From Dyella acidisoli (GTDB lineage: Bacteria; Pseudomonadota; Gammaproteobacteria; Xanthomonadales; Rhodanobacteraceae), in the NCBI RefSeq assembly GCF_030160295.1, contig NZ_BSOB01000008.1:1-64000 (forward strand): DNA of 64,000 nucleotides, written 5' to 3'. This document shows positions 30,620 through 62,015 of the stretch, one piece after another. The notes beneath the pieces were generated by a model that saw nothing but the letters and a program-made list of their open reading frames with translations, ran no database searches and had not been told where the DNA came from. The position numbers were made by a program, and so were the translations under genes. Each line of letters starts with the position of its first letter. Within the stretch, counting starts at the first letter, position 1.

Positions 30620-30624
30620 GCGGT
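30620..30624. repeat. Putative 5 bp target duplication, left copy
   Basis: GCGGT lies directly outside the left TGTCGGGA end; GCGGT recurs at 62011-62015 beyond the right end. Tn7-like elements make 5 bp duplications. Confidence 0.5.
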
Positions 30625-30780
30625 TGTCGGGATCAGCAAATTTTGTCGCTTCGCATAAATTATTGAAAACAATAAATTAATTTACTAATACCCCTACGGG
30701 ATGTGTCGGTCGGCGACGGGGTTAAGTGTTTTTTGTCGGCTAGCGACACGGTCACGTGATGTTTCTGTCGCTTAGCGACA
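30625..30780. repeat. Left transposon end with palindromic TnsB-type sites
   Basis: Sites: TGTCGGGA (30625), TTTGTCGC (30642), TGTCGGTCGGCGACG (30704-30718), TGTCGGCTAGCGACA (30734-30748), TGTCGCTTAGCGACA (30766-30780). GCGACGGGGTTAAGTG (from 30713) is shared with the right end. Confidence 0.7.
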
Positions 30781-30977
30781 GGGTTGGCTGACGCAGCCTA
30801 ACGCGGCCAGCGATACAGTGAGTTTCAATTGCACCGTGGTCACGGTGCTCTCTACCACCGCGACGGGATTGGTGATGACGATGCCGAGTGGTGCCACCAT
30901 GGGCCGATCAGCTCGACCGAAGACGGCCAGCAGTGCCACCCTGTTGTCATTGATGAGAAGTCTGTACTCGATTCAAG
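30781..30977. other. Spacer inside left transposon end
   Basis: No convincing gene; short open frames here lack ribosome sites. Confidence 0.4.
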
Positions 30978-31655
30978 TCACTTGAGATCATGCTCAAGAG
31001 GCGTACTGTGAGCGTAAAAGTCTATGTTGTTCGGCCACGCATCGGTATGGTCCTGAAACGATTGACTGATAAGAAGGTCAGGGCTGTTCACATGTCCGGC
31101 CGCGCAAACGTGCGGCTCTCGTTTGGCGGCACTGGTCAATGGATCGTGTCTGTTTGGAGGGCTATCTCGTTGAACCAAAGGTCGCAAGATCGCTATGTGA
31201 CCGGGCAACGCTATCGGTTGGCCTGTTTTGTCATCAATGGCAGGGCGTTGAGCGTAGGATGCTAAAACCAATTTACCCTTGTTGGTGGCTTCCTGCGCCA
31301 ACTTAATAACGCCTACGTCGCCGCTTCGCCCAATACGCAGCCATCCCGCCGCGCTCGCTGCTTCACCCTGATAGCGTTGATAACCTCTTAACCAATGATC
31401 TTGAGCGCTGGCAAGCAATAATTCGTCGTGAAATGGAGGTCGCAGAACGTAGATGCCAAGTCGCAAACAGGCCGCTGCGACGAAAGTGCTGCAATGCGTA
31501 TAGTGCGCACGACCAACATCTGGAGGAGCATTTTGTTGACCAGTCTCCCAGACGATGTGATGGCCTTTTAGCCAATAGCGATCGACTTGAAGTCCATCAA
31601 GAAACTCAACCAATCTTTCGGCACCTGCCGAAGCGTAATCCTGCGGTGCGGCCAT
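30978..31655 (-). CDS. NlpC/P60-like cysteine peptidase or amidase candidate
   Basis: 225 residues, no signal peptide. THCSTFVAAACLRLGI (about residues 53-68) has the Cys-Ser/Asp-x-hydrophobic pattern of the papain-like NlpC/P60 and CHAP nucleophile helix, and LPGHIAIL near 150 fits the catalytic histidine strand. Such enzymes cut cell-wall peptides; lack of an export signal suggests delivery by another route or a cytoplasmic substrate. GAGG precedes the ATG by eight bases. It follows the DUF4430 gene by 22 bases and is surely cotranscribed. Assignment to a precise family is uncertain. Confidence 0.6.
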   Translation of the reverse strand: MAAPQDYASAGAERLVEFLDGLQVDRYWLKGHHIVWETGQQNAPPDVGRAHYTHCSTFVAAACLRLGIYVLRPPFHDELLLASAQDHWLRGYQRYQGEAASAAGWLRIGRSGDVGVIKLAQEATNKGKLVLASYAQRPAIDDKTGQPIALPGHIAILRPLVQRDSPPNRHDPLTSAAKREPHVCAAGHVNSPDLLISQSFQDHTDAWPNNIDFYAHSTPLEHDLK

Positions 31656-31677
31656 ACATCCGTCCTCTATATGTCGA

Positions 31678-32064
31678 TTAGAGCGGCCTGGTTTTGAGCG
31701 GCAGAGAGACGGCTGCCTGAGCGCTCATATCGGTGTATTTCCATTCGACTAATGACGACCGCTTGCTAGGGTCTTCTTTGATTATTGCTTCGCTGGCGCC
31801 GACTAAAGATTCTTTACCATCCACAAAGAGTAACCAGTAGTGGTTTGGCTGATCACCATCGGATAATCCGTCAATGCTGTCGATCTGTGCCCCATAGATC
31901 GATCGATATTCCACCCGGAAAGCAAAATTTTTCGTGTTAAGCGCTTCGCCGATTATCATTGCCTGGAGCGCAGTCATCCCTGCGTACCAAGGAATTCCCG
32001 ATAGGATCAGCGATGGTGGCTGCGTCTGATCGGCGTAAATATTGATCTCAACTGTATAGCCCAT
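31678..32064 (-). CDS. DUF4430-like (transcobalamin C-terminal fold) protein
   Basis: 128 residues. VEINIYADQ ... GMTALQAMIIGEAL ... INGLSDGDQPNHYWLLFVDGK-type layout (here IDSIDGLSDGDQPNHYWLLFVDG) and the closing SLVEWKYTD strand are typical of DUF4430. In other bacteria the domain is in surface proteins; here it stands alone without a signal peptide. A strong AGGGGG site precedes the ATG. First gene of a two-gene operon with the NlpC/P60-like gene. Confidence 0.65.
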   Translation of the reverse strand: MGYTVEINIYADQTQPPSLILSGIPWYAGMTALQAMIIGEALNTKNFAFRVEYRSIYGAQIDSIDGLSDGDQPNHYWLLFVDGKESLVGASEAIIKEDPSKRSSLVEWKYTDMSAQAAVSLPLKTRPL

Positions 32065-32467
32065 AAAATCCCCCTATTCATGATGTCTGCACCACGCATG
32101 TCATGTAATGACATGAACCAATAGCGGACGCTTATGAGCCCGGTAGCCATCTCCTTGTACTGCTAACAGGATGGGTTGAGCAGGTTAACCTAATTCATCA
32201 AGGCAACTGGGCTTAGCAATCACAATCATAGCAATAGCTATCTGCTTTTTTGAGAAAGAAAGCTTGTGCCGGCTGCAGCAAGGAGCTATGCGTGCTTGTG
32301 AAATCTTTGTGACGACCTGATGGGGGGACTAAATTCGTTGTGATAGCTGCAAGAAGCGAGGTGGCGCTATCGGACTCGCCCGCGCGAGCGGCGGTGGGAA
32401 GCATCGGACTTCGACAAAAGAAAGGCCCTTCGATCCCCGGCCTGTGTGCCGCTGGCGCCATTGCGTT
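32065..32467. other. Intergenic region without recognised gene
   Basis: Contains the promoter of the DUF4430 operon. A minus-strand frame at 32213-32461 exists but lacks a ribosome site and protein-like composition. Confidence 0.4.
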
Positions 32468-32692: not shown

Positions 32693-32696
32693 ATAT

Positions 32697-32841: not shown

Positions 32842-33810
32842 ATGTCGCGAGCAGACCTTTTAGTTAACTTGGTTAAAGCTGGCAGCGAAGGCGACCAGCG
32901 GTTACTCCGTACCACGGTGGAAGCTATGGCTGCCGAGGAACGTGCCAAACATCATCATCAGCTGGCTGACCGCCTCGTTCAAAATCTCGGGGGTGACAAG
33001 CCACGCCCGCGCGCTCCTGAAGTGGTGCGTTCTTATGATGGCGGTCACGGCGGGCTCCTCTTTGAGATTGAGCCGCGGCGCACGCTTGATGCCTTGCTCC
33101 TTAACAACAGCGTCCGAACCGCATGCCGCGAGCTTGTTGAGGAGCAGCAAAGAAGCGATCTGCTCCGGTCCTATGGATTGGAGCCTCGGCATCGCGTGCT
33201 TCTTTCCGGGCCGCCGGGCAACGGCAAAACATCATTGGCCGAGGCATTGGCGTCAGAGCTAATGGCGCCCTTATTTGTAGTCCGCTATGAAGCCGTCATC
33301 GGCAGCTTCCTAGGGGAAACGAGCAGCCGCTTGAAGCGCTTATTCGATTTTGTACGTACGCATCAATGTGTATTGTTCTTCGATGAATTCGATACGCTCG
33401 GCAAGGAGCGTGGTGATACGCATGAAACGGGCGAAATCAAGCGCGTTGTGAGTTCGCTTCTTTTGCAGATCGACGCTCTGCCTAGCCATGTTGTTGTCGT
33501 CACTGCCACCAATCACGCCGAGTTACTCGATCGGGCCGTTTGGCGCCGTTTCCAGCTGCGTTTGGACATGCCAGCGCCGACTGAGGCCCAGAAAGAAGTC
33601 TGGTTTGTTGAGTTGCAAAAAAAACTCAAGGCACCGTTGGGGGTTGCGCCTAAAACGTTGGCTGCAAAGTTGCCCGCCACCAGTTTTTCGGACCTCGAAC
33701 AATTTTGCGAAGATATTCAGCGGCGCTACGTATTGGCGTTGCCAGGCGCCGATCTGAAGAAGATCGTTGCTGAGCGTCTAAAACAATGGCAGGTTCGATT
33801 TACGATGTAA
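32842..33810 (+). CDS. ietA: IetA-type AAA+ ATPase of an IetAS defence module
   Basis: 322 residues. AAA domain with Walker A GPPGNGKT (123-130), Walker B VLFFDEFD (177-184), sensor-1 VVTATNHAELLD and arginine finger region WRRFQLRL. The N-terminal 100 residues are helical. An AAA ATPase directly followed by a large subtilisin-like protein is the composition of IetAS, a two-gene system reported to protect bacteria against phage. The 29-base gap to the protease gene supports an operon. Most likely the ATPase controls the protease. Mechanism in the family is not well understood. Confidence 0.82.
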   Translation: MSRADLLVNLVKAGSEGDQRLLRTTVEAMAAEERAKHHHQLADRLVQNLGGDKPRPRAPEVVRSYDGGHGGLLFEIEPRRTLDALLLNNSVRTACRELVEEQQRSDLLRSYGLEPRHRVLLSGPPGNGKTSLAEALASELMAPLFVVRYEAVIGSFLGETSSRLKRLFDFVRTHQCVLFFDEFDTLGKERGDTHETGEIKRVVSSLLLQIDALPSHVVVVTATNHAELLDRAVWRRFQLRLDMPAPTEAQKEVWFVELQKKLKAPLGVAPKTLAAKLPATSFSDLEQFCEDIQRRYVLALPGADLKKIVAERLKQWQVRFTM

Positions 33811-33839
33811 CAATCCATTGAATGTCTTAGGGGATAAGG

Positions 33840-36431
33840 ATGCCTGAAGGACAGCTACCCCTTCTAATTTTTCCCGTTCGTGCCAGGGGCGAACGAAATA
33901 ACATGGGAGGAGGTGGTGGACGGATCCATGTCCCCGATATCGCTCGTCAGCGTGAGCGCATTGCTCCTCAGTTGGCCGTTCTTCAAGGTGCCTTCGAGGC
34001 CCGCCGATTGCAGCTACAAGACGCTGGGCCGCTTGAAAATCCTGAGTTAGTACTCGTCCTTGAAGTCGTAGGGACAATCCAACACTTTGCCAGGGCAGTG
34101 GCAGGCATCCAAGGACTGGAATGGCTGTATGAATTTGCCCAGGATCGGATTTCTCCGGACGATGATTTTCATGAACAGGACAGACAAGACAAGCTTCTAA
34201 CTGGCCGCCTTTACCTGCTTGGGACGAATCAACAAGCACTCAATCAGCTACTTGCTCTTTGGGATCGCTATCAACGTAATCCGGCCGCGCCTTTTGATAC
34301 AGGTCTCGCGCCATTTAAGCATTTGTTCTCTCATCTCCGTGCTATACGCCCTTGGAGCACAGAAGATCGCGTAGGCGTGGATATTCGAGATTACTGGCTA
34401 AGTGAAATCGAGAGCGGTAAACCAATTATCCGGTTCGAGATCGAGATTTGGTATCACGCATCCGCCGCTAGGAACGACGCCGCACGAGCGGAAATTGCGA
34501 CCCTGATTGAACAGCAGGGTGGCGACGTTATCAGTCACGCGGTAATCGATGGAATCGCTTACCACGGACTTTTGGTCGATTTACCGATCGAGGCAGTGCG
34601 CGCCATCTTGGAGGGTGGCGTGCCGCAGCTACTGCTATCCGATCGCATCATGTTTTTCCGGCCCCGGGGACAATCGGTTACCGAAAGCGCTCGGGAAGAA
34701 CACGTGGTTCAAGGCCAGGCACACGCCGCTGCGTCCGATGCGCCGCCGATCGTGGGCCTGCTCGACGGACTTCCGATGGCCAATCATGCACTGTTGGCGG
34801 GACGTCTGACTATCGACGACCCGGATGGTTGGGAGGCGGGTTACGAGGCAAAAGATCGCGTTCATGGCACGGCCATGGCATCACTGATTTTGCACGGGGA
34901 TTTGGACGAAGCGGGTCCAACCCTTCATCGACGACTTTACGTTCGCCCCGTCATGCGCCCAGATCCGGACGATGGGTACCATCGCCGCAGAAGGGAAAGC
35001 ACGCCCAATGACGTGCTGCTTATAGACCTCATGCATCGCGCCGTCCGGCGGATGTTCGAAGGAGAGGGTAACACTGGCCCGGTCGCTCCTACGGTCAAGA
35101 TAATCAACCTATCGCTCGGAGATCCTCACCGCATCTTTGCGAATGAAATGTCGCCATGGGCCCGCCTAATCGACTGGCTGTCGTATCAGTACTCCGTGCT
35201 CTTCATCGTCAGCGCCGGCAATGATCCTTCTGATGTAACGTTGGCAACACCGCGTGATTCGCTGGTCAACATGTCGCCACCCGAGCGAACGGCGATGGCT
35301 TTGTCGGCCCTCGTGCAGGACGGCATTTCTAGACGCTTGATGGCACCGGCCGAGTCCATGAATGCTCTGACGGTGGGGGCATTGCATATGGATGCGTCCA
35401 ATCCAAACGTACCGCAGAATCGATTCGATCTTTTTGAATATGGCGGCATCAGTCCGATTTCACGTGTGGGGCTCGGGTATCGAAGGGCTGTGAAGCCGGA
35501 CATCCTAATGTCAGGAGGTCGTTGCCTTTATCAAGAGCAGCTCGTGGGGCAGCCCGATGTCACTATCTTGCGAGTGCTCGATGCTGGGTACGCGCCTGGC
35601 CACAAGGTGGCCATTTCCCCAGATGGCGGCGGAGATCTGAATCTCAGCACCTATACACGGGGAACGAGCAACGCTGCGGCTCTCGCCACGCGAGCGGCTG
35701 CGCAAGCATACGACATGCTTGAAGAACTTCGTGCGCAGGAGCCGAATGCTCCGGGGCATGAATATGATGCAGTCGTGCTCAAGGCGTTGCTCGTGCATGG
35801 CGCCTCATGGGGAGAGTTGTCCGATAATCTGTTGCGCCCTCGTCCAGACCTGGCAGCGATTCCTAATGGAATCACTCGACATCACGCTCAAAAGGACTTT
35901 CTGACGACATGGCTCGGATATGGGCCGGCTAACATTGAACGTGCTATCGGTTGCACTCAGCAGCGTGCCACCTTACTTGGTGTGGGAACGCTGGCCGCTG
36001 ATAAAGCCATGGAGTTTTCTGCGCCACTTCCAACGAGCCTTGCAGGTCGAGTTGTCTGGCGTCGGGTTACAGTCACGCTCGCATGGTTGACACCGACTCA
36101 TCCTACGCATCAAGCATATCGTCGAGCGAAGCTGTGGGCTTCGGGCGTTGGTGCGGAGCTAAGAGTCAACCGAACTAATAGTGTTAGTGACAAAGCCGCT
36201 CTGCGAGGCACGGTTCAGCACGAAGTGTTCGAGGGGGCTGATGCGGTGGTCTTCGTGGAAGGCGATGCATTCGCCTGCAAGGTCAATTGCGCACGGGATG
36301 CAGGGAGCTGGCAAGGTGGCGTTCGCTTTGCGATCTGCGTCTCCCTCGAAGTGGCTGTCGATTCTGGGATTGCAGTGTATGAAGAGATACGTGAGCGTCT
36401 TGCACCACCTGTTCCAATTCAGCCGGGTTAA
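33840..36431 (+). CDS. ietS: IetS-type subtilisin-like (S8) protease
   Basis: 863 residues, no signal peptide, so a cytoplasmic protease. The S8 triad is complete: Asp309 in VGLLDGLP, His342 in VHGTAMASL, Ser610 in RGTSNAAALA, with oxyanion Asn461 in VSAGND. About 300 residues precede the catalytic domain and about 230 follow it (beta-rich, WRRVTVTLAWLTP), both larger than in secreted subtilisins and fitting a regulated effector. Forms an operon with the AAA gene upstream. A protease that fires on infection is the expected role; the target is unknown. Confidence 0.84.
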   Translation: MPEGQLPLLIFPVRARGERNNMGGGGGRIHVPDIARQRERIAPQLAVLQGAFEARRLQLQDAGPLENPELVLVLEVVGTIQHFARAVAGIQGLEWLYEFAQDRISPDDDFHEQDRQDKLLTGRLYLLGTNQQALNQLLALWDRYQRNPAAPFDTGLAPFKHLFSHLRAIRPWSTEDRVGVDIRDYWLSEIESGKPIIRFEIEIWYHASAARNDAARAEIATLIEQQGGDVISHAVIDGIAYHGLLVDLPIEAVRAILEGGVPQLLLSDRIMFFRPRGQSVTESAREEHVVQGQAHAAASDAPPIVGLLDGLPMANHALLAGRLTIDDPDGWEAGYEAKDRVHGTAMASLILHGDLDEAGPTLHRRLYVRPVMRPDPDDGYHRRRRESTPNDVLLIDLMHRAVRRMFEGEGNTGPVAPTVKIINLSLGDPHRIFANEMSPWARLIDWLSYQYSVLFIVSAGNDPSDVTLATPRDSLVNMSPPERTAMALSALVQDGISRRLMAPAESMNALTVGALHMDASNPNVPQNRFDLFEYGGISPISRVGLGYRRAVKPDILMSGGRCLYQEQLVGQPDVTILRVLDAGYAPGHKVAISPDGGGDLNLSTYTRGTSNAAALATRAAAQAYDMLEELRAQEPNAPGHEYDAVVLKALLVHGASWGELSDNLLRPRPDLAAIPNGITRHHAQKDFLTTWLGYGPANIERAIGCTQQRATLLGVGTLAADKAMEFSAPLPTSLAGRVVWRRVTVTLAWLTPTHPTHQAYRRAKLWASGVGAELRVNRTNSVSDKAALRGTVQHEVFEGADAVVFVEGDAFACKVNCARDAGSWQGGVRFAICVSLEVAVDSGIAVYEEIRERLAPPVPIQPG

Positions 36432-40738: not shown

Positions 40739-41377
40739 TCAACTTGTTTCGTTGATGGTGGTGTCGTCGTTGTCCAAGAACGTCGATTTGAAAAGCATGC
40801 CAAGCGCAGCGCGAATCGCCTCATCACGGATGTCATTGGGCATGCTCATGTTGAGGTACAGCACGCCATCAATGAGCGTCATCATGGTTAGCGCAAGCAC
40901 ATTCGGATCCATCGGTAATTGGATGTTTATGCGTTCGCAGAACTGCGTGATGAAGCAGGTGATGACGTCGCGCTTCTCCAGCGTCAAGGCGTTCAATCGC
41001 TGCCGGAATTTCGTATCGCGCATGGCATGCAGATGTGCCTCCGCCCAGAGGATGTAGTTGCTGCTGTCGCGATAGCACTGCTCACACAATGATACGAGCT
41101 GGGTTTGAAGGCTTTCGCTGGACTCGGATGTGTCTACAAGATTCCGTAAATTTTCTTGAGTGAGTCGATGCTCAACACGAAGCAGTTCAACGAACAGATC
41201 GGCCTTGCTGCTGAAGTTCGAATAAAAAGCGCCGCGAGTGAAGCCGGCCTTTGCAGCGATGTTCTCTACGCTCGTTGCGGCCAGGCCCTTCTTGGCAATG
41301 ATCGTGGTCGCAGCTGCGATCAAACGCCGACGGGTCTGCTCTCGACTTTCCGCCCGACTCAAGCGTATGCGTGACAT
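40739..41377 (-). CDS. TetR family regulator beside the efflux outer-membrane gene
   Basis: 212 residues from ATG 41377. Helix-turn-helix LAATSVENIAAKAGFTRGAFYSNFSSKADLF; C-terminal domain with CFITQFCERINIQLPMD. It begins 13 bases after the stop of the outer-membrane efflux gene and is cotranscribed with it. Confidence 0.9.
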   Translation of the reverse strand: MSRIRLSRAESREQTRRRLIAAATTIIAKKGLAATSVENIAAKAGFTRGAFYSNFSSKADLFVELLRVEHRLTQENLRNLVDTSESSESLQTQLVSLCEQCYRDSSNYILWAEAHLHAMRDTKFRQRLNALTLEKRDVITCFITQFCERINIQLPMDPNVLALTMMTLIDGVLYLNMSMPNDIRDEAIRAALGMLFKSTFLDNDDTTINETS

Positions 41378-41390
41378 GCAGCAGCGGCTA

Positions 41391-42851
41391 CTATTTGATG
41401 GCGACCGCTTGGGCTCCGTCAGGTTGCCACCCGCCGCCCAGTGCCTTGAATGCAGCAACTGCCGCGCGTGTCGACTCCGTTTGCGCCTGCGCTCGCTCGT
41501 CGGACGCACGCAATAGACTTTCGTCCGCCTGGAGCACTTCGATCAAGCTGACCACGCCTTTTTGATAGGCCGCAAACGAGGCTGCTCTTGCGCGGCCGAG
41601 CGAATCTACACCCTGGGTGAGCACGGCCGCTTCTTCTTCGCGTTTGACCAGTGTTGAAAAGGCGTTTTCGACATCTTCGGTTGCGTGCAGTGCCGCAAGC
41701 CGATACGCAGCTAACATCTCGGCTTGCTGTCCCTTGGCCTGCTGGATCTGCGCATTGATGCGACCGAAATCGAACAGTCGCCAGCGCAAGCCCAACACGC
41801 CAGCCGCTTGATTGGCGCCGCCGGTGAACAGATTCCCGCCCGCCACCGAGGTCGCACTGCCGATCAATCCACTCAACGAGAGTTTGGGGTAGTACTCGGC
41901 GATGGCGACACCGATGCGTGCGTTCGATGCGGCGAGGCGACGCTCAGCCACGATCAGGTCTGGCCGGCGCCTGAGCAGTTCGCCGGGCGTTTCAGTAGTG
42001 GCGATTTGCGGGGCGACCGGAATGTCACCAGCTTCCATCAGCTCCGCGCGATGCGTGCCGGGTTGCGAGCCCAGCATCACATCCAATGCATTCATGGCAG
42101 CGTCCAGGCCCGCTTCAAGCACCGGGACGGATGCTTGTACCTGCGCAAGCGCCCCTTCAGCCTGTCGCACTTGGAGTTCAGCCGCCAATCCCTTGCCGTA
42201 CAGAAGTTTGATGGTGGCGAGCAGGTCCTGCTGCGTGCGTACTTGCTTGCGCGCCACGTTTAGCCGCGCTTGCAGTCCGCGAATGGTGATGTAGATGTCG
42301 GCGGTTTGCGCGGCCACCGCCAAGCGCGTGGCGACGACGCCCGCTTCGGATGCCTGGTAATCCGCTAGCGCCGCTTGCCGTCCGCGACGCAAGCCACCGA
42401 ACGCGTCCAATTCCCAGCTGGCATTGAAGTTGACCTCATAGTCATTGCCGTAGCGATCGAACCCGGGTGTGGCATTCAAGACCTGGCCCAGCGGCGTTTG
42501 GACCGACTGATAGACCCTGGCCGCCTGACCACTGATGTTGCCGGCAGGCAGCAACGCCGCATTGGCGGCGCCCAGACCTGCACGTGCCTGGGCAACGCGC
42601 GCGGATGCCTGCGCGAGATCCAGGTTTTGTTCCAACGCAAGCGTTACGTACCGGGTCAATTGCGGATCGCCGAAGCCCGTCCACCATGTGGCAAGGTCGG
42701 CGCTGGTTGTCGCGTACCGCTGATCAACCTCGGCTTGGCCCTGGAAATGCTCCGGCATGGCGATGTCGGGCCGGACGTAATCGGGGCCGACCGCGCAGCC
42801 CGCGAGGAGGCCGGTAGCGAACAGCGCGACAAGGATGTGTTTGGGCGACAT
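41391..42851 (-). CDS. Outer-membrane factor of an RND efflux system (NodT family lipoprotein)
   Basis: 486 residues. Lipoprotein signal LLAGC followed by AVGPDYVRPD, the common start of NodT-type TolC homologues. Two OEP repeats follow (ATWWTGFGDPQLTRYVTLALEQNLDLAQASARV and LLRRRPDLIVAERRLAASNARIGVAIAEYYPKLSLSG). It is divergent from a TetR gene across a palindromic operator and should be the exit duct for the inner-membrane pump at 44.7 kb. Confidence 0.94.
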   Translation of the reverse strand: MSPKHILVALFATGLLAGCAVGPDYVRPDIAMPEHFQGQAEVDQRYATTSADLATWWTGFGDPQLTRYVTLALEQNLDLAQASARVAQARAGLGAANAALLPAGNISGQAARVYQSVQTPLGQVLNATPGFDRYGNDYEVNFNASWELDAFGGLRRGRQAALADYQASEAGVVATRLAVAAQTADIYITIRGLQARLNVARKQVRTQQDLLATIKLLYGKGLAAELQVRQAEGALAQVQASVPVLEAGLDAAMNALDVMLGSQPGTHRAELMEAGDIPVAPQIATTETPGELLRRRPDLIVAERRLAASNARIGVAIAEYYPKLSLSGLIGSATSVAGGNLFTGGANQAAGVLGLRWRLFDFGRINAQIQQAKGQQAEMLAAYRLAALHATEDVENAFSTLVKREEEAAVLTQGVDSLGRARAASFAAYQKGVVSLIEVLQADESLLRASDERAQAQTESTRAAVAAFKALGGGWQPDGAQAVAIK

Positions 42852-42872
42852 GGGTTCGCTCCGACAATGGTT

Positions 42873-42896
42873 GTGACTATATTACCAAATAGTCAC
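42873..42896. promoter_or_regulatory. TetR operator, copy 1
   Basis: GTGACTAT-N8-ATAGTCAC between the divergent outer-membrane and tetR genes; matches the site at 43567-43590. Confidence 0.8.
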
Positions 42897-42935
42897 TAGT
42901 TGTCCATTCCCAAGGCGAGGGGTAAGCTCCCACCC

Positions 42936-43553: not shown

Positions 43554-43566
43554 TGTGTGACGCGTG

Positions 43567-43590
43567 GTGACTATTGACTAATTTAGTCAC
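43567..43590. promoter_or_regulatory. TetR operator, copy 2
   Basis: GTGACTA-N10-TAGTCAC, with a further TGACTA at 43575, upstream of the adaptor gene. Confidence 0.78.
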
Positions 43591-50457: not shown

Positions 50458-51369
50458 CTACACATCCATGAAGTCGAATGACGTGGCGTACATCAATGCG
50501 CGGCGCTTCGCGATGGAACGAAACCCGCGAAGCTCCAGCCAACGATCGGCTCGCTCTTTTCCGACGTCCATCACAAAGGTCATCACGCGCGGTTCCTCAA
50601 ACGAACCGTCGCGGCCTTCCAGTTTGAGTCGTCCGTGTAGACGCGTCGACTGTGCTAACGCTGCTGCGCGATGAACGACCTCTTGTTCCAGTGAGCTCAC
50701 GCCACGGCGCTGTTCACAAATCTGGAGCGCACCGACGCTGCGTTGATAGAGCCATTCCTCAAAATGGCAAACACGCCGCCAAGCATCTATGGAAGGAGGT
50801 GTCTTTGGACGAATGCCGTACGCATACATTTTCGCCAGGGTGAGGTCTTGCATGAACTGAGGGCAATCGTCCAACGCCGGTCCTTGGCCCATAAACCATT
50901 GATGAGGTAAACGTCGGAACCCGCTGGGAGCGGTCTTGGGCCACGGAAAGAGTGGGCAGCCGTGTTGGCGGCAATGAGTCAGGAACACTCTCGCCCAGTC
51001 CAGGCGAAAGTACGGTGTATAACCGGATGCCGCGTCCTCGAAAAAACAGATCGGGCAATAAGCATTACGGTAGGACATAAAGACGATATGGCTACCGTAA
51101 TGGGCCAGCGCACCCGACAAGGCCGCGCTGGTCTGCCCGATTTTAGTGGCGTAGTGATCGAGAAATTTGTCCAACGGCAGACGCACATCCACATCGCGAC
51201 GCCCCAGGGCACTGGGAGGATCGACCTGATTCATCAGGTCGATCCTTGATACGCCCCAGAGCGACGCTTGGCGATCCACCAGCGAGGAAATGGTTTCCCC
51301 CGGCATCAGGACCTGCGGGGCCAAACGCAGGCGCGGCGCCGAATCGTTAATCGCGGGTGGTGCCATCAT
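50458..51369 (-). CDS. tniQ: TniQ-family target-selection protein
   Basis: 303 residues. TniQ start PGETISSLVDRQASLWGVS, then a zinc-finger region YCPICFFEDAASGYTPYFRLDWARVFLTHCRQHGCPL. In Tn7-like elements TniQ/TnsD proteins choose the target, alone or with a partner. It is shorter than TnsD of Tn7 and nearer to the short TniQ proteins. It overlaps tnsC by 4 bp. No cas genes are in the window. Confidence 0.9.
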   Translation of the reverse strand: MMAPPAINDSAPRLRLAPQVLMPGETISSLVDRQASLWGVSRIDLMNQVDPPSALGRRDVDVRLPLDKFLDHYATKIGQTSAALSGALAHYGSHIVFMSYRNAYCPICFFEDAASGYTPYFRLDWARVFLTHCRQHGCPLFPWPKTAPSGFRRLPHQWFMGQGPALDDCPQFMQDLTLAKMYAYGIRPKTPPSIDAWRRVCHFEEWLYQRSVGALQICEQRRGVSSLEQEVVHRAAALAQSTRLHGRLKLEGRDGSFEEPRVMTFVMDVGKERADRWLELRGFRSIAKRRALMYATSFDFMDV

Positions 51370-52313
51370 CGCAGACTCTCCAACCCCTGCGGGCGAGGAG
51401 GTGGATCTTCAGCCGCTTTCAGCCCCGCTAGATCCAATCGCTCTTCACCGCTCAAGATCGCGCGCACACCCGCGCACTTAATGCGACTCATGATCTCGCG
51501 CAGGCTACCCTCGGACACCTCAGCGAGGTAGTTAAGGACTTGCTCATTGCGAAGCTCGGACGGCCTGCGCAGCGGCAAGCTGGTCTCCAGCACACCCAGG
51601 AGATCGACCAGATCCTGATTGGCTTGCCACTGCGGAAGCCGAAAAGGACGCAACCTCGCCTTAAGATGCTTATCTATGCGAAGGGCTTGATCGGATTCGG
51701 GCGTGCCCAAACAAATCAAAGCCACTTTTGCTTCGTTCATGATCATCTTCAGGCTGGTCAGTACCTGTTGGTGTTCGCGTTGGGTGCCATCCTTCACATC
51801 CTGGATTTCGTCGGCCACCAGGCCCCGGATATTCATAGCCCTGAAAAGACGGAATACGGTGTGTTGACGATCTGATGTGCGGGCATTTTTTGAAACGAGT
51901 CCTTCCAAGGCCTCGATGATGCGTCCATAGATGTCGCGCATATTGCGCGCACCACCTGCCTGAAACATGAGAACGCGGCCTTGCCCGATGCGCACCAGTT
52001 CGTTCCCTACCGTACTTTTACCTGCGCCGGGTTCGCCCGTCACCAGCATCCCCATGGGTGCTACGCCCAGAGGTTGCGTCAGTAACCAGTGGGCATAGTC
52101 CATGGCTGTACGGTAGGCCTTGTGCTCGATCACGCCGCCGTGCTTGATAAGTTCCATACGCACAGCAGCTGGTAAGGCTGCATCGGCGCGAAGCGTGGGA
52201 TTCAGGTGCGCATACAGGACATCATCATCCGTGCTCGTGGTATTCAACGGTATGTCCGGCAGTGGGGAGTTCACCGGAGTGGAGATATGTTCTTCGTTGA
52301 TGCGGCTATCCAT
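51366..52313 (-). CDS. tnsC: TnsC/TniB-type transposition ATPase
   Basis: 315 residues from ATG 52313, five bases after the tnsB stop. AAA domain with Walker A TGEPGAGKST and Walker B RGLVADEIQD; GTPESDQAL is the sensor region. Forms filaments on target DNA and links TniQ to TnsAB in related systems. Confidence 0.92.
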   Translation of the reverse strand: MDSRINEEHISTPVNSPLPDIPLNTTSTDDDVLYAHLNPTLRADAALPAAVRMELIKHGGVIEHKAYRTAMDYAHWLLTQPLGVAPMGMLVTGEPGAGKSTVGNELVRIGQGRVLMFQAGGARNMRDIYGRIIEALEGLVSKNARTSDRQHTVFRLFRAMNIRGLVADEIQDVKDGTQREHQQVLTSLKMIMNEAKVALICLGTPESDQALRIDKHLKARLRPFRLPQWQANQDLVDLLGVLETSLPLRRPSELRNEQVLNYLAEVSEGSLREIMSRIKCAGVRAILSGEERLDLAGLKAAEDPPPRPQGLESLR

Positions 52314-52317
52314 AAGT

Positions 52318-54138
52318 TTAGGCGCTCTTCCTGTAGGTTCCAAAATCACGTATGTCTCGATCAAAAACCAGAACGGTAGATGCGGGAGACTGGGGGGGTG
52401 TGGAGCTGCTGGGTAATGGCACATCTCTTGTTTGCGCTTCGCGCGTCTTCTGAATAGCGGCAGCGCGATGAGCAGCCTTCGTGCTGGCTATGGCCTGATT
52501 CGTGTTGGCATCTCTGAAGTCGAGCCCAGCATCTTTATATGCAAGAAGTTCAGGTGCTTCAGATAGTGCTGCATTTCGTTGGCGTTGCAGGCGAAGCTCC
52601 TCAAAAGCGATGCAGCGTGTGTCGCCCTTGGTGTGCAAAGCGACGACAATTGCTCCGCTGGGTCCGCGCAGATAGACCTTGGAGGCATCGCCGGGGTGGA
52701 AGTGGATGGCGCACTTTTCTTTCCGCCCCACCCATTCGGTCAGTTCATCCGCCCAGTAAAAACGCCCGCCGAATTCAATGCCGGTCCGGCGAATACACCG
52801 CATTGCGAAGGGATAGAAAAGGACGGGAATTTGCCAGGGCGCATAGCCCGATGGCAAAGGGCGCCCGGCGTTGTGCTCTGCCGCTAACTCACGCCATTTC
52901 ATCAAGGGCGGTACGTCCAGTGTCCGGTGCCTAGTAACGTGATAGCCGCGCACGATTTCGTTCACAAAAAAGGCTTTGAACGCTGAGAGCGTCATGCGTG
53001 CGTCACGTTCAGCGTCATAGTCACCGCGTTCGACGACATTGCGCTGCGTGCTTCCGGGGAGAAGCCGGCATTTACCCATGAACGTGCCGATCAGTCGTTC
53101 GATGATGCCACCATAATGAGGCGCGTCCACAGGGCGGTTTTGCAAATCGATACCGATATCTGTGCAACCGTTTTGGAGTGCTTCGCTATGGAACTCCCGT
53201 GCGTTATCGGCGTGGACGAGTAGCATGACGCCATGGACGGGCCATTCACCGTCAATGCCGAGTGTTGCGAGGAAGTCGGACTTTGGAAGGATGGCATGGG
53301 CCAAGCACATGCCTACCGAGATGGCGCTCGGTGGTTCTAGTGAGATATAAACCCCGACTACCATCCGCGATTTCACATCAATGGCGAGCGTCACCCACGG
53401 TCGTCCTATGACGATGGTCTGATCGAATTCAGATACGAGGAGGACATCGGCGAGCGTGTGGTCGATCTGGACGTACTCCAAAAGTTTCCACACCTCGAAG
53501 GAGCCCGTCATGGGGGTCAACTTGTATTTGGCGGCCTTGGCCCCTTCACGCCGTCTGATACGTTCATATTCATCGAGTTGACTTGCGCGATGCCGAATGG
53601 TGGTCGGACTAGGCAGAGGGCACTGGAACTTCCGACATTCCTTGTGGATGTGCTCAATGGCATCTGTGAGCGACGGTTTGGTTTCTTTAAGCCATCGCTC
53701 ATTCAGCTGGGTCGCGATGATTTCTTCGACTTTCGGCAAGAGCAGCCGAACACCTGTGCGACGGCCGCTCTTTTCGGGCTTCATCGCACTGACCGTGCCC
53801 TGGATACGAAATTGCCTGACTTTTCGCTGCATGGTGCGAAGGGAAAGACCTAATTGCTCCGACGACTCTTCGTAGCGTTGTTTCTTTTCAGCGGGTGTCT
53901 GCGCCGCGAGGATCTTTCGTGCGGCCTGAGCGTATTGGTCCCACTCTTGCCATGCCGACGCCTCTGCGGGGGCCAGCGGCAAAGGCCTGTCGGTGGCTAA
54001 CGTGAGTTCAGTGGCCTTGCATTCGTAGATCTCACCCGAATCGGTGCGAGCGATGAGCGTGACGGTATCGCCGGAGGCATCCAGTACTTCCATGCGGCGT
54101 TCGCGATAGACAACCTCCATGCCGGACTTAAACTGCAT
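52318..54138 (-). CDS. tnsB: TnsB/TniA-type DDE transposase
   Basis: 606 residues. An N-terminal beta/HTH DNA-binding part (LGLSLRTMQRKVRQFR), then an rve integrase core with the DDE triad Asp226 (YVQIDHTLADVLL), Asp311 (LLVHADNAREF) and Glu347 (GGIIERLIGTF), then a Mu-transposase-type beta-barrel. It binds transposon ends and joins the 3' ends to target. Starts inside the tnsA 3' end (11 bp overlap). Confidence 0.95.
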   Translation of the reverse strand: MQFKSGMEVVYRERRMEVLDASGDTVTLIARTDSGEIYECKATELTLATDRPLPLAPAEASAWQEWDQYAQAARKILAAQTPAEKKQRYEESSEQLGLSLRTMQRKVRQFRIQGTVSAMKPEKSGRRTGVRLLLPKVEEIIATQLNERWLKETKPSLTDAIEHIHKECRKFQCPLPSPTTIRHRASQLDEYERIRRREGAKAAKYKLTPMTGSFEVWKLLEYVQIDHTLADVLLVSEFDQTIVIGRPWVTLAIDVKSRMVVGVYISLEPPSAISVGMCLAHAILPKSDFLATLGIDGEWPVHGVMLLVHADNAREFHSEALQNGCTDIGIDLQNRPVDAPHYGGIIERLIGTFMGKCRLLPGSTQRNVVERGDYDAERDARMTLSAFKAFFVNEIVRGYHVTRHRTLDVPPLMKWRELAAEHNAGRPLPSGYAPWQIPVLFYPFAMRCIRRTGIEFGGRFYWADELTEWVGRKEKCAIHFHPGDASKVYLRGPSGAIVVALHTKGDTRCIAFEELRLQRQRNAALSEAPELLAYKDAGLDFRDANTNQAIASTKAAHRAAAIQKTREAQTRDVPLPSSSTPPQSPASTVLVFDRDIRDFGTYRKSA

Positions 54139-54646
54139 GGTGCACCTCCTGCAGCGATGGCAACCGCACCAGCGGCAGACCTAACGCAGCGGCCACGATA
54201 CGGCGCCGCAGTTCCCAGACCTTGGGGTCGATCGTCACGGTCGGCGGTTTCACCTCGACGAGGCAAAGGTTGCTCAATCCCAGCATTGCCCAGTGCGTCG
54301 GCGGATGGTCGAGCAGGACGAGCGCATCGGGCGTGTAGCGGCGTGCATGGCCGTCCTCATGCCATTCAAACGTTGCAGGTTGCGTGGCCAACGCCTGGCA
54401 CGACGGATCATCCGCCAGTTCGCGCAGCACGCGCCGTTCCAGTGCGCTTTCCACACGAAGCATCGGTTGGCCCAAGAATGCACAAAGGTAGCCGGTGTGA
54501 TGGCGACCGTACGACAGAGGTACGCGACGATGATTCCAGAACACTTTGATGGTGGGATCGGCTGACGACGAGGCCAGTACGGGTTCGATTCGGTCCTTGA
54601 TGGACGAATTGCGGTACGCCACCTTCAATTCACGATATTTCCTCAT
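54128..54646 (-). CDS. tnsA: TnsA-type endonuclease
   Basis: 172 residues from ATG 54646 (a longer frame to 54706 is possible). PD-(D/E)XK-like nuclease: ESALERRVLRELADDP (catalytic Glu), YTPDALVLL (Asp) and LCLVEVKP (E-x-K). TnsA cuts the 5' ends so that transposition is cut-and-paste. First gene of the tnsABC-tniQ operon. Confidence 0.88.
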   Translation of the reverse strand: MRKYRELKVAYRNSSIKDRIEPVLASSSADPTIKVFWNHRRVPLSYGRHHTGYLCAFLGQPMLRVESALERRVLRELADDPSCQALATQPATFEWHEDGHARRYTPDALVLLDHPPTHWAMLGLSNLCLVEVKPPTVTIDPKVWELRRRIVAAALGLPLVRLPSLQEVHHAV

Positions 54647-54748
54647 AGAAAAACAAGCTCCATGCTTGAGATGGCCATCGGCCATAAAAAGTGGAGCCCT
54701 AGGCAAAACTCGCCCTTGCCCTACGAAGGGGTTGGGCTAGCATGAGTC

Positions 54749-54946: not shown

Positions 54947-55324
54947 CTAGTCGGACGCGTCTTCGTCGCGGCACCGTTTGTTTGTGGAATGGGCACTCTT
55001 GGGGCGCAGTTCCTGGCTAGACAGCTGGGCCATTGACGCAGGCGTAGATTCATCGCCAGGGCAGATGGCAGATACGTCAATAGAAGCCAGCCAAGCGGCA
55101 ACGTCTCGTGTCCGGGCAAACCACCCCTTCCGTCCAGGGAGCCGAAATACGCTCACCGGCAGACGGCCTGCCGCGGCGGCCCGCCGAAAGGCTCTCTCGT
55201 GGTTCATGCGCAATAAGCGTCGAAGATCGGCGCCGGTCATCAGTTCCCCGTGAGCGCCTAAGAGGCTGATTTCAATTGGATTCTTTATCGCTTGGTGACC
55301 AATGGGTCGGACAAATGCGGACAT
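54947..55324 (-). CDS. Small putative DNA-binding protein (excisionase/AlpA-like HTH)
   Basis: 125 residues; GGAG seven bases before the ATG. MTGADLRRLLRMNHERAFRRAAAAGRLPVSVFRLPGRKGWFARTRDVAAWLAS has the layout of MerR/AlpA-like small helix-turn-helix proteins. Basic/Ser-rich tail. It points toward tnsA in the same orientation, 300 bases upstream. Confidence 0.55.
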   Translation of the reverse strand: MSAFVRPIGHQAIKNPIEISLLGAHGELMTGADLRRLLRMNHERAFRRAAAAGRLPVSVFRLPGRKGWFARTRDVAAWLASIDVSAICPGDESTPASMAQLSSQELRPKSAHSTNKRCRDEDASD

Positions 55325-55388
55325 ATGGGGTCTCCGATGGACTGGTGCGCATCGTAAGCCGCATACTGTTTTCTCCGACCAAACAAAA

Positions 55389-56600
55389 ATGGGGAATTAC
55401 GCTCTAATGGCTCCAGGACGGCCTTCATGCAGCTTTGCCGACCCCGTTAAGCGTGTACGGGCATGGTGTTGGCTGTCCGATTTGCAGGATGCAGTGGGTG
55501 TTGGGGCAGCACTTGAGCTGGATAAAGGCCCTCTGATGAAAGGGTTTCCTCTAGGAAGAAGGTTTCAGTCCATCGCAGATGACGGGTTTGACCCAGGTCG
55601 GGTCCAAATAACGGCGACCCTTTCGTTGCTGGATCACGTTTGTAGAAAGAGGCCATATAGCCATTTGCGAGAGGTCTATCGTCACTCGCTTTGGCGAGTG
55701 CTGGAAGATCGTTCATGGGGCGAACATCGGCGAGACGAGCTACTGGAAAAAGCCCTCAAAAACGTGGGGCTAGTTGTCATTGATATCGTCGACGCAGGTC
55801 ACGCGAGGGGACTAAGTGTCGAGTGGCGAGAACACTTCAGCGTCAAAATCTACGGTCCGGGTGAATACGATTATGAACCCGTGCTTCTTTCGTTTAAGAA
55901 TTCCAAAGTTGCCGAGTCTCTGGCAACGTTGGACGGCATCCTTGCTCTCGTGTTGCTTTTACGGCGTAGCCTTGATGTGGGCAACACGAAATTCGCACAC
56001 CAGATATATCGTGTTCTTGAGAAGGCTTGTTATACCTTCGGTGCACGATGGCGAGGAGAAGCAGCTGATACGTGGAATTACGTGGTCAGGACGCGTGCGC
56101 TTGCGTGGATACCAGACTTTGAACCCAGTGCAAAAGCATGGGAAAGTGCAAGAACGCTTGTTCTGCTCGAATCCAAAGAGGCCAAACGTGAGGGACGTGG
56201 GCGCCCGTCTCGTAGCGCTGACCAAGTAACAAGTGGGAAGGTGGAGCGTCGCTGGAGACGTCGCATCTTAATGAAGGCGTGTGCTTTGACAGATTCAAAA
56301 ATCTGGCATGTTGGGTTTCAAGAACGTACACGCTTCAATGAGTGGTTGACTGGGAACCGTCGACTCATCGAAGCGCATTTAAATTGGGCGGCCTATCTCG
56401 AGTATGTTGGTGGGGGTGAAGATCCGGATTACGAAGCTCAATTCGCAAAACTCCCGTCTCTGGAGATTCCCGTCGATGCCGACCACTCAAATTCCTACCC
56501 GTATTCTGGACGTCTAGAGGGACATCGAACGGAAGGTTCTGATCGCGGCATGCTCTCCATGGAGATTCCCGTCGATGATGATGCTCATAATGCGGACTAG
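55389..56600 (+). CDS. Hypothetical protein with duplicated C-terminal motif
   Basis: About 403 residues; family not recognised. Mostly helical and basic in the middle (AKREGRGRPSRSADQVTSGKVERRWRRRILMKA suggests nucleic-acid contact). The tail carries two near copies of a motif (SLEIPVDADH and SMEIPVDDDAH) about 35 residues apart. Start uncertain: an ATG at 55302 would overlap the divergent gene; 55389 and 55407 are alternatives. Confidence 0.6.
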   Translation: MGNYALMAPGRPSCSFADPVKRVRAWCWLSDLQDAVGVGAALELDKGPLMKGFPLGRRFQSIADDGFDPGRVQITATLSLLDHVCRKRPYSHLREVYRHSLWRVLEDRSWGEHRRDELLEKALKNVGLVVIDIVDAGHARGLSVEWREHFSVKIYGPGEYDYEPVLLSFKNSKVAESLATLDGILALVLLLRRSLDVGNTKFAHQIYRVLEKACYTFGARWRGEAADTWNYVVRTRALAWIPDFEPSAKAWESARTLVLLESKEAKREGRGRPSRSADQVTSGKVERRWRRRILMKACALTDSKIWHVGFQERTRFNEWLTGNRRLIEAHLNWAAYLEYVGGGEDPDYEAQFAKLPSLEIPVDADHSNSYPYSGRLEGHRTEGSDRGMLSMEIPVDDDAHNAD

Positions 56601-60350: not shown

Positions 60351-60554
60351 ATGGCAAGCGTTGATGATCTCAATGTGCAACGTGTGCTTCGGGCAGCCGA
60401 AGCAATTTCGGGAGATCGCGCCCGAGCCATCGCATGGCTGCAGCAACCGATCCTAGATTTCAATGGGAAAAAACCGATGGACTTAGTTGATGAAGGTCGA
60501 ACCGATGCTCTGTTGCGTTACTTGAACTCAATCGAAGTGGGTCCCGTCGGCTGA
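60351..60554 (+). CDS. MbcA/ParS-like antitoxin C-terminal domain protein
   Basis: 67 residues. ISGDRARAIAWLQQPILDFNGKKPMDLVDEGRTDALLRYLNSIEVG matches the toxin-binding domain of MbcA/ParS/Xre antitoxins. The N-terminal DNA-binding part and a RES-domain toxin are both missing, so it is an orphan or a remnant. Confidence 0.7.
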   Translation: MASVDDLNVQRVLRAAEAISGDRARAIAWLQQPILDFNGKKPMDLVDEGRTDALLRYLNSIEVGPVG

Positions 60555-60611
60555 TTTAGGTGCAGACAAAATATTTTGTTGCAGACTCGATGCTGTCGCC
60601 GAAGGTCGCCT

Positions 60612-61601
60612 ATGAAGAACACCCGGAAGCATCACCGAACGATCAGGCCACGAAGCACCCGTGACCTACGCGCGGAAGTGGCGGACCTCGCCGCAACCCT
60701 TGCCAGCACAGCGGGGAAAGGGGAGCTGGTCATAGAAGATCGACGCATCAGTGCGCAAACGATTCAGTTCGAATGGGACCGGCTCTTAAAGGCCTTTCCG
60801 CCGCAATTGCGGTCGCGATTGACGTTGAAAATCCTAGAGCCCGAGCCCGCGTCGCACGCGCGGCATCCGGCCATTGACCAGGCACGCAGCGTGATGCTGG
60901 GCACACCCAACTTTCGCTTTGAGGTGGTACGCCAGTTGATCGGCGCCGATATCGATCAGGCCGGACCCCAAAGTGTCGAGGCCCTTGTTGAGAAGATCGG
61001 CGCCTCACAGTTCACGGTACGCAAGGTGCTGGGTGAGCTGGTCGGGTGCGGCATCGTCAAGCAATCGCGTCCAGCAAACGCACGTTTCTCCCTCAAGTCG
61101 GCCGACATCAACCCGGAGCTGCTGGGGATCGCAAGGGCCATGCCGCAGACATTGCGGTTCCGGTATGCCGCCGGCACCCGCCCGCGATCGATGGGCGAAC
61201 TGATCCAGCGCTTCGAGCAGCTCATGCAAGCTGGCACCTCTGCAGGTTGGAAGAACATCGGATTGTCAGGGTCGGCAGCGACAAACCTGCTACGCCTTCG
61301 CCAGGTGGATCTCCTTGGCGTGCCACGCATGGATCTCACGGCCTATATCGCTAAGTCCGCCAAGACGTTCGACGTGTCCCTGCTCCACGAGCTGGATAGT
61401 GGCCTTGAATACGTGTCGGACGTGTTCTGGCCAGCGTCGCTGGTTATCACGCCCGTGCGTTCGGATGTGATGTTCAATCATCCCGACGGTGACCACCCTT
61501 GGCGTTTTGCGCAGAACAGCGATATTTATCTTGCGCTACTCCATACGGACTTGCGGGAGCAGGCGGTACAGTTTGCCGCTGGCGGTGGCAGGGGTTGGTG
61601 A
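60612..61601 (+). CDS. Winged-helix protein with AbiEi-like C-terminal region
   Basis: About 329 residues. Basic N-terminus, then a winged helix (VEALVEKIGASQFTVRKVLGELVGCGIVKQSRPANARFSL, about 125-165), then an AbiEi-like alpha/beta domain (WKNIGLSGSAATNLLRLRQVD, ITPVRSDVMFNHPDGDHPWRFAQNSDIYLALLHTDLREQA). AbiEi proteins are antitoxins of AbiE systems; no AbiEii toxin is beside it. Last complete gene before the right transposon end. Confidence 0.55.
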   Translation: MKNTRKHHRTIRPRSTRDLRAEVADLAATLASTAGKGELVIEDRRISAQTIQFEWDRLLKAFPPQLRSRLTLKILEPEPASHARHPAIDQARSVMLGTPNFRFEVVRQLIGADIDQAGPQSVEALVEKIGASQFTVRKVLGELVGCGIVKQSRPANARFSLKSADINPELLGIARAMPQTLRFRYAAGTRPRSMGELIQRFEQLMQAGTSAGWKNIGLSGSAATNLLRLRQVDLLGVPRMDLTAYIAKSAKTFDVSLLHELDSGLEYVSDVFWPASLVITPVRSDVMFNHPDGDHPWRFAQNSDIYLALLHTDLREQAVQFAAGGGRGW

Positions 61602-61681
61602 TAAAGGCTCGCACATCGGAGCAACTCGCGGTCGCGCGACTCGAAGCATTTCTCGCCCAAGCCCGACCGAAAGCTGGCTAA
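61598..61681 (+). CDS. Very short open frame overlapping the AbiEi-like stop
   Basis: GTGA overlap. Twenty-seven codons (VIKARTSEQLAVARLEAFL...) that look protein-like. Either the true C-terminus displaced by a frameshift or a truncated second gene. Confidence 0.3.
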   Translation: MIKARTSEQLAVARLEAFLAQARPKAG

Positions 61682-61931
61682 GTCGGACGTCATAGGCCGG
61701 ATGATGGGAGCACAGCCGCCGTAGATGGCCGGCGTTGTGCCAGGCGCATGCGCGACACCGGCAAATTGCTGGGCGTATGGTCGGAGGCAGAGCGCGCGCT
61801 TTTGCTTTGGGCTTCGTGTGGGTGACCGGACGTTCGCGCTATCTCTTTGAATTCCTTAGAATTGTCCTGGATTTTTGGATTTTCCTGTATTTTAGGATAA
61901 ACCTTCCTTAATCAAGCACTTGCCGAAAATT
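61682..61931. other. Non-coding right sub-terminal region
   Basis: No gene seen. AT-rich from 61840. Confidence 0.4.
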
Positions 61932-62010
61932 TGTCGCTTAACGACAGCGTTATCTGTTCGCGACAGGGTTAAGTGTTTTGCGACAAAGTTAAGCGTTCCC
62001 GACAACAACA
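61932..62010. repeat. Right transposon end
   Basis: TGTCGCTTAACGACA (61932-61946), GCGACAGGGTTAAGTG (from 61960), GCGACAAA (61980-61987) and terminal TCCCGACA (61997-62004), then ACAACA. Mirrors the left end. Confidence 0.72.
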
Positions 62011-62015
62011 GCGGT
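62011..62015. repeat. Putative 5 bp target duplication, right copy
   Basis: GCGGT, identical to 30620-30624. Confidence 0.5.

What the first reader, a model, noticed from the sequence alone, without database searches (positions are those of the whole stretch)
30620..62015. A roughly 31.4 kb Tn7-like transposon with readable ends and a possible target duplication
Seen: both ends read TGTCGGGA-N9-TTTGTCGC inward, with identical 17-base spacing, and both carry groups of TGTCG...CGACA palindromes and a shared GCGACRGGGTTAAG block. GCGGT lies next to the left end and six bases beyond the right TGTCGGGA; if the right end is 62010 it too begins TGT. A complete tnsABC-tniQ operon is inside. Inference: all cargo from 30.6 to 62.0 kb moved, or was assembled, as one element. 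Alternative: the shared 14-20 bp block could be att repeats of an integrase-driven island, but no integrase is present.
Basis: partly seen in the sequence, partly recalled or inferred. Interest (0 to 1): 0.9.

Follow-up and report, generated by a model that had tools for sequence, protein, structure and literature searches.

The report
Jumping DNA docked beside glnL
A 31.4-kb Tn7-like jumping element, with both ends and a short copied target sequence readable, sits just upstream of the nitrogen-control gene glnL (ntrB), a spot that at least two different Tn7-like lineages use as a docking site in this family of soil bacteria.

Summary
TGTCGGGA-N9-TTTGTCGC occurs once per strand, facing inward, at 30625 and 62004; TnsB-type site clusters lie only at these ends; tnsA-tnsB-tnsC-tniQ lies between. 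Best reading: a Tn7-like transposon at 30625-62010 (31,386 bp) with a GCGGT target duplication. Support for the duplication is spacing: removing the element and one GCGGT leaves 51 bp between the glnL operator and the end motif of the neighbouring element; 20 loci from other genomes have 44-53 bp, mostly 51-52. A right end at 62004 without duplication gives 62 bp.

The dense end of this transposon type faces it in five genomes of three genera. A second Tn7-like lineage (fused TnsAB, other ends) occupies the same place; its end motif is there in 21 of 233 family genomes, reversed control 0. One such element lies directly left of the finding: a tandem stack. Cargo includes IetAS anti-phage genes and an RND efflux operon. 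The site was not found in the papers searched. That TniQ reads this site is inferred.

The parts
30620..30624 (.). GCGGT, left copy of the target duplication
   Evidence: spacing test
30625..30800 (+). Left end: terminus TGTCGGGA, one terminal and three spaced TnsB-type sites (30636, 30726, 30756, 30788)
30978..32064 (-). Two cargo ORFs (225 and 128 aa; the second has a DUF4430 match)
32842..36431 (+). IetA (32842-33810) and IetS (33840-36431), anti-phage system cargo
   Evidence: IetA E 2e-152; IetS 1050 bits
36713..37795 (-). Nested IS110-family transposase
40739..47883 (.). RND-type efflux cargo: TetR, OEP, TetR, HlyD-type, AcrB-type genes
50458..51369 (-). tniQ, 303 aa, target selector candidate
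   Evidence: PF06527, 40.2 bits, cut-off 27
51366..52424 (-). tnsC (TniB-type ATPase); the true start is probably inside this ORF
   Evidence: PF05621, E 6.5e-30
52318..54138 (-). tnsB, DDE transposase, D226/D311/E347 invariant in 4 relatives
54128..54706 (-). tnsA-like endonuclease, E-D-ExK residues invariant in 3 relatives
   Evidence: (E 4.6e-8, below the curated cut-off)
54947..55324 (-). Small DNA-binding-type ORF beside the tns operon, similar ORFs beside tns operons of both lineages
55302..56600 (+). Accessory ORF, 432 aa, weakly similar to ORFs in the same position in relatives
   Evidence: E 4e-5 and 0.006
61930..62010 (-). Right (dense) end: (TGT)2-TGTCGGGA terminus, three TnsB-type sites 19-20 bp apart (61993, 61973, 61954) and a palindrome
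62011..62015 (.). GCGGT, right copy of the target duplication
62043..62081 (+). Conserved operator/start region of glnL, the presumed attachment site
62079..63113 (+). glnL/ntrB (nitrogen regulation protein NR-II); an ORF read as ntrC follows
   Evidence: (234.4 bits, cut-off 240)
27855..30614 (.). 2.76-kb element of the second end type directly to the left, with one gene (28741-30057); not part of the finding but of the stack

Best explanation
30625-62010 is one Tn7-like transposon that moves by cut-and-paste with its own TnsA, TnsB and TnsC. TnsB binds the spaced sites of the left end and the close-packed sites of the right end; TnsA and TnsB cut the element out; TnsC and the 303-aa TniQ place it upstream of the conserved operator/start region of glnL (ntrB), here 33 bp from it, with the dense end facing glnL and 5 bp (GCGGT) copied. 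Operator and gene stay whole. The site is a hotspot: a second Tn7-like lineage with fused TnsAB and other ends uses it as well, so elements of different lineages stack in tandem next to glnL. Shown: ends, genes, spacing, recurrence at glnL. Inferred: that TniQ reads this DNA, that the enzymes are active, that the host is little harmed.
For: Inverted ends unique in 64 kb and site clusters only there. Complete tns operon with invariant residues that I read as catalytic. Removing the element and one GCGGT restores a 51-bp spacing; 20 other loci have 44-53, against 62 without duplication. The same dense end lies directly at glnL in window, G007, G008, G147 and G190. 8 of 88 TniQ matches of 233 family genomes lie within 25 kb upstream of glnL, in 7 of 61 genomes (the glnL list was cut, so a lower bound). 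Conservation begins on the glnL side of the insertion points (30 of 33 rows, 3 with another start context dropped). No guide-like match to the target inside the element.
Against: The duplication needs a right end 6 bp longer than the left. G008, with both ends present, shows no 5-bp repeat by eye and no tns genes between. The TGTCGG end pattern also occurs away from glnL: in 13 of 18 genomes no glnL was seen within 1.5 kb, and a TniQ relative of 41% (G220) lies beside another gene. In G007 and G190 the tns operon reads towards the dense end, in the window away from it. No same-species empty site. The TniQ model was poor (pLDDT 51.7).
Confidence: 0.87

Rival explanations
1. The two ends come from different insertions: tandem elements of the same type fused by a deletion, so there is no true target duplication and the right end is at 62004.
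For: With the right end at 62004 both ends are exactly symmetric; G008 shows a pair of ends without a repeat, and G013 shows two ends of this type 75 bp apart, so tandems exist.
Against: Gives a 62-bp spacing, outside the 44-53 bp of 20 other loci, whereas the duplication reading gives 51; chance of the 5-bp match about 1.1%.
Confidence: 0.1
2. An integrase-driven genomic island whose shared end blocks are attachment repeats.
For: Short block shared by both ends.
Against: 0 of 8 integrase matches of this genome lie on this contig; the block is one of several TnsB-type sites; tns operon inside; no tRNA in the window.
Confidence: 0.02
3. A CRISPR-guided Tn7-like element that reaches glnL with a guide RNA.
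For: A TniQ shorter than typical TnsD could need a partner (survey PMC10293859, passages).
Against: No shared 12-mer and no 32-bp match to the 190-bp target above shuffled levels (21-22 of 32 against 21-23 in 5 shuffles); no repeat array found by the direct-repeat search in 30000-62300; no Cas domain in 26 element ORFs scanned with Pfam; one weak Csx3 hit to the IetA ATPase (E 0.005), taken as a P-loop match.
Confidence: 0.01
4. A transposon of this kind is guided to glnL by the host regulator NtrC bound to the operator, not by TniQ reading DNA alone.
For: The conserved stretch beside the insertion points is the operator/start region, which reads like NtrC sites (consensus recalled); TniQ proteins that show no similarity to each other in tblastn at E 1e-6 converge on it.
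Against: A second operator-like pair in this genome (C6:80883) shows nothing that looks like an element in the 3 kb read. DNA reading by TnsD is the known rule for Tn7. Not tested.
Confidence: 0.1

Closest known systems
Tn7 (TnsABC + TnsD at glmS)
   Same: TnsA, TnsB, TnsC and a TniQ protein; one end with spaced, one with dense TnsB sites; dense end next to the recognised sequence; offset, gene-preserving insertion (comparison from PMC11406308, section 2.6.1).
   Different: Target is the operator/start side of glnL, not the 3' end of glmS; TniQ is 303 aa (TnsD length recalled as about 500 aa); no TnsE match among 26 element ORFs scanned with Pfam; right terminus carries extra TGT units.
Tn7-like elements of Dyella acidiphila 7MK23 (G007) and Rhodanobacter sp. 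MP7CTX1 (G190)
   Same: TniQ 48% identical, TnsB 48-50%, same end type, same site beside glnL.
   Different: tns operon reads towards the dense end instead of away from it; different cargo (G190 has another IetAS pair and an LmuA-like protein).
Fused-TnsAB Tn7-like elements at the same site (G010, G006, G118, G102)
   Same: Use the same place beside glnL; TnsC and TniQ genes alongside.
   Different: Other ends (ACAAAC palindromes), TnsA and TnsB in one protein, TniQ of 469-486 aa in G010 and G006; no tblastn similarity of their TniQ to the window's at E 1e-6.
CRISPR-associated transposons (I-F3, V-K)
   Same: TnsB is nearest, by profile, to solved TnsB of such systems.
   Different: No cas genes or guide found.
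Tn5053 family
   Same: TniQ and a TniB-type ATPase; TGTCG-like terminus (recalled).
   Different: TnsA is present; no resolvase match among 26 element ORFs scanned with Pfam; chromosomal fixed site.

Membership tests
Tn7-like transposons | TnsB DDE transposase | tested here: met
   Mu-transpos_C E 7.5e-9; D226, D311, E347 invariant; profile matches solved TnsB
Tn7-like transposons | TnsA endonuclease | tested here: met
   TnsA-like model E 4.6e-8 but 32.8 bits against a cut-off of 110; E, D, ExK invariant; relative in G190 has a sub-threshold TnsA hit
Tn7-like transposons | TnsC AAA+ ATPase and TniQ-domain protein | tested here: met
   PF05621 and PF06527 over their cut-offs
Tn7-like transposons | Asymmetric ends with arrays of TnsB sites and TGT termini | tested here: met
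   binding itself not testable here
Tn7-like transposons | 5-bp target duplication | tested here: met
   GCGGT both sides and restored spacing; needs a 6-bp longer right end; no same-species empty site
Tn7-like transposons | Site-specific insertion with fixed orientation | tested here: met
   Five genomes with the dense end towards glnL; other places exist too
Tn7-like transposons | Transposition activity | not testable with these tools
   needs a bench assay
CRISPR-associated transposons | Cas effector genes and guide RNA in the element | tested here: not met
   dedicated Cas models were not run on all ORFs
Tn5053 family | No TnsA, resolvase for cointegrates | tested here: not met
   TnsA present; no resolvase in 26 element ORFs scanned with Pfam
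Tyrosine-integrase genomic island | Integrase gene in the element | tested here: not met
   0 of 8 PF00589 matches of this genome on contig C8

The most novel reading that the evidence does not exclude
Two Tn7-like lineages have separately taken the ntrBC (glnLG) operator as their chromosomal home, and their TniQ proteins are guided there with the help of the host regulator NtrC bound to that operator, so that transposition could respond to nitrogen supply.
Probability: 0.1. Interest if true: 0.8.

Novelty: new variant of a known kind. Interest (0 to 1): 0.5.

Why it matters
Attachment sites of Tn7-like elements named in the passages I saw are glmS, yhiN, comM, parE, tRNA genes, guaC, yciA, ffs and rsmJ (PMC11406308). 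A site on the operator/start side of a regulatory gene, shared by two lineages with different TniQ proteins, would widen the idea of a safe site and gives two selectors that can be compared on the same DNA. The stacking helps explain how this spot builds islands that carry anti-phage systems. The variable (TGT)n right terminus would let one test how exactly TnsB must cut.

Tried and rejected
Rejected: guide-RNA targeting (no Rfam match in 30000-63200). Rejected: integrase island. My first guess that the host is Xanthomonas was dropped when close relatives proved to be Dyella and Rhodanobacter. My first guess that the ACAAAC palindromes are tyrosine-recombinase sites was dropped when tns operons with fused TnsAB were found beside them. 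A promoter reading of the operator was dropped: the scan of 61900-62200 found none. The TniQ model was too poor to search with, so no fold search was run. Left ends of the elements in G007, G190, G004 and G006 were not found by pattern in the stretches fetched. No empty-site pattern was run on genome contigs; its one scan went to TniQ relatives (24 stretches matched, 7 confirmed). An order-wide scan for operator plus TGTCGG end matched 2 of 398 genomes, both in this genus; the pattern is strict and missed G008, if drawn, and other forms, so it is no evidence of absence. PMC2621215, which holds 'Tn7-like' and 'ntrB', was opened for passages: its Tn7-like copies lie at glmSU and among hypothetical genes, not at ntrB.
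Full report
WHAT WAS CLAIMED AND WHETHER IT IS THERE. The pattern TGTCGGGA-N9-TTTGTCGC occurs once on each strand of the 64 kb, at 30625 and 62004, facing inward. GCGGT flanks the left end and lies six bases outside the right TGTCGGGA. A profile of the repeated site, made from 17 right-end sites of six genomes (three of them the window's own, none from its left end), finds clusters only at the two ends: left sites 18.0, 12.5 and 15.9 plus a terminal one of 9.3, right sites 20.5, 23.5 and 14.3; the best single site elsewhere scores 12.8. The right end has three sites 19-20 bp apart, the left end spaced ones. This is the layout described for Tn7-like ends, with the dense end next to the recognised sequence (PMC11406308, section 2.6.1 read in full).

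GENES. Pfam names TniQ, a TniB-type ATPase and a Mu-type transposase; NCBIfam gives a TnsA-like model, E 4.6e-8 but below its curated cut-off. Residues that I read as catalytic are invariant among relatives: D226, D311, E347 in TnsB (4 sequences); E86/E90, D127, E151, K153 in TnsA (3 sequences). The TnsB profile matched 87 solved sequences at E <= 0.01, of which 60 were shown; the best are TnsB of CASTs (6.5e-54) and Tn7 (5.8e-22), the rest shown largely retroviral integrases. Cargo: IetAS, a nested IS110 copy, an RND-type efflux operon with TetR genes, and ORFs without a match. None of this genome's 8 integrase matches is on this contig; no tRNA was found in the window, no Rfam match in 30000-63200.

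THE NEIGHBOURHOOD. The right flank is glnL/ntrB (NR-II model 234.4 bits, cut-off 240), followed by an ORF that I read as ntrC. All 16 genomes searched in the genus have glnL, but the sequence just upstream differs between them. Two kinds of end occur there: the TGTCGG kind, and a kind with a palindrome of the form CATAGTTTGT...ACAAACTATG. Upstream of the second kind, in G010, G006, G118 and G102, lie tns operons in which TnsA and TnsB appear fused, with TnsC and TniQ. Pfam gave nothing for the G010 fusion and a sub-threshold rve hit for that of G006; the fusion reading rests on motifs read by eye, on one solved relative of the G006 protein (9bw1_M, E 1.5e-20) and on similarity among the four.

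HOW OFTEN. The TGTCGG right-end pattern with up to one mismatch gave 20 places in 18 of 233 family genomes; the reversed control gave 2. tblastn with GlnL found glnL within the 3-kb loci of 5 of the 18: window, G007, G006, G008 and, in another genus, G147. In G006 an end of the second kind lies between. In the other 13 no glnL was seen within 1.5 kb; in one of them, G004, it lies 7.4 kb away behind an element of the second kind. G190, in a third genus, was found through its TniQ; its right end misses the pattern but reads TGTCGGCGACGCGTAACTGTGTCGC. So five genomes of three genera have this end directly at glnL: window, G007, G008, G147, G190. The second kind of end motif lies beside the operator in 21 of 233 genomes of 6 genera, control 0; not every one was checked for a whole element. 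TniQ (PF06527) gave 88 matches in 61 of 233 genomes. Compared with the glnL places listed (glnL found in 224 of 233, list cut before its end), 8 TniQ matches lie within 25 kb upstream of glnL: G000, G007, G010 (two), G006, G118, G190, G102. My rough estimate for chance is 0.5 (88 x 25 kb / 4.2 Mb).

THE DUPLICATION TEST. In genomes with the second kind of end the distance from the operator to the palindrome is nearly fixed: 44, 48, 49, 50 (2), 51 (7), 52 (7), 53 in the 20 loci measured, of 21 genomes (G248 had no locus). The search pattern allowed about 42-70. In the window that palindrome lies left of the Tn7-like element. Removing 30625-62010 and one GCGGT leaves 51; joining at 62004 without a duplication leaves 62. 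So the right terminus is most likely (TGT)2-TGTCGGGA at 62010. Two other right ends, G004 and G190, also have one extra TGT outside TGTCGG; G007 and G008 have none. Against a simple rule: in G008, where both ends are present (2568 and 15501 of L030), I see no 5-bp repeat and tblastn finds no tns gene between them.

THE TARGET. Of 33 glnL starts, 30 with the common context were stacked (3 dropped): conservation runs from about TTTGCACCAA through the start codon into the gene, with hardly any upstream, where the elements insert. What is recognised should therefore lie on the glnL side. From the operator edge to TGTCGG the distances are 39 in the window (33 to the inferred terminus) and 37 in G190; counted by hand on the same output, 34 in G008, 46 in G007 and 41 in G004 with its later insert taken out. 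The conserved stretch reads like two NtrC sites (consensus recalled). A second place in this genome with the outer pattern (C6:80883) shows nothing like an element in the 3 kb read. The window's TniQ is 48% identical to those of G007 and G190, both beside glnL; a 41% relative in G220 lies beside another gene.

STACKING. Directly left lies a 2.76-kb element of the second kind (27855-30614) with one gene and no transposase seen; its body is 94-97% identical in G001, G006, G010 and G011. Left of that, about 27785-27849 reads as the end of another, with 5 bp between. Several genes of 4.8-30 kb of the window recur in the 20-60 kb fetched upstream of glnL in other genomes. In G004 the order is reversed: the second kind sits nearer glnL, with a repeat readable as ACCGA or CCGAT, and the TGTCGG kind behind it. 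So the site gathers elements, new ones next to glnL. That different lineages escape each other's target immunity is my inference.

HOW IT PROBABLY WORKS. TniQ finds the glnL start region, TnsC relays, TnsA and TnsB cut and join with the dense end towards glnL; operator and gene stay whole. These steps are established for Tn7 and inferred here. The survey PMC10293859 (passages) notes that in dual loci the selector over 400 aa suggests direct targeting; at 303 aa this TniQ is in between, so a partner is possible, for example the product of 55302-56600, whose position is weakly conserved.

LITERATURE. I found no report of glnL or ntrB as a Tn7-like site (listings and abstracts), in passages of PMC10293859, PMC8649781, PMC11406308 and PMC2621215. 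Supplements could not be read, so lists of sites there were not checked.

VERDICT. A well-delimited Tn7-like transposon at an attachment site that I could not find described, used by two lineages: new variant of a known kind, interest 0.5.

Noticed in passing
27855-30614: A 2.76-kb element of the second end type with a single gene and no transposase; the body recurs at 94-97% identity in four other genomes, so it may be a non-autonomous passenger.
   Followed up: partly
L139:15713-19256 (G190) and window 32842-36431: IetAS anti-phage genes are cargo in both elements, but of different subtypes.
   Followed up: partly
L030:2568-15501 (G008): A pair of TGTCGG ends 12.9 kb apart at glnL with no tns genes between: perhaps a non-autonomous or decayed element.
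   Followed up: partly
L035:10546-17706 (G010): A fused-TnsAB element with two different TniQ genes, one before and one after the operon, and a reverse-transcriptase gene of a defence type near its end.
   Followed up: partly
L025/L011 (G012:C50:189073-189233): The first 160 bp of the glnL operator/start region are present a second time about 1.5 kb upstream of glnL: a second possible docking site.
   Followed up: no
L014 (G005), upstream of glnL: Another pair of palindromes (GACTACACGTGTAGTCA type) lies upstream of the operator; perhaps a third element type.
   Followed up: no
54947-55324: A small DNA-binding-type ORF; similar ORFs lie beside tns operons of both lineages. Role unknown.
   Followed up: partly
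right ends in window, G004, G190: Extra TGT units outside TGTCGG at the right end (two, one and one), none in G007 and G008.
   Followed up: partly
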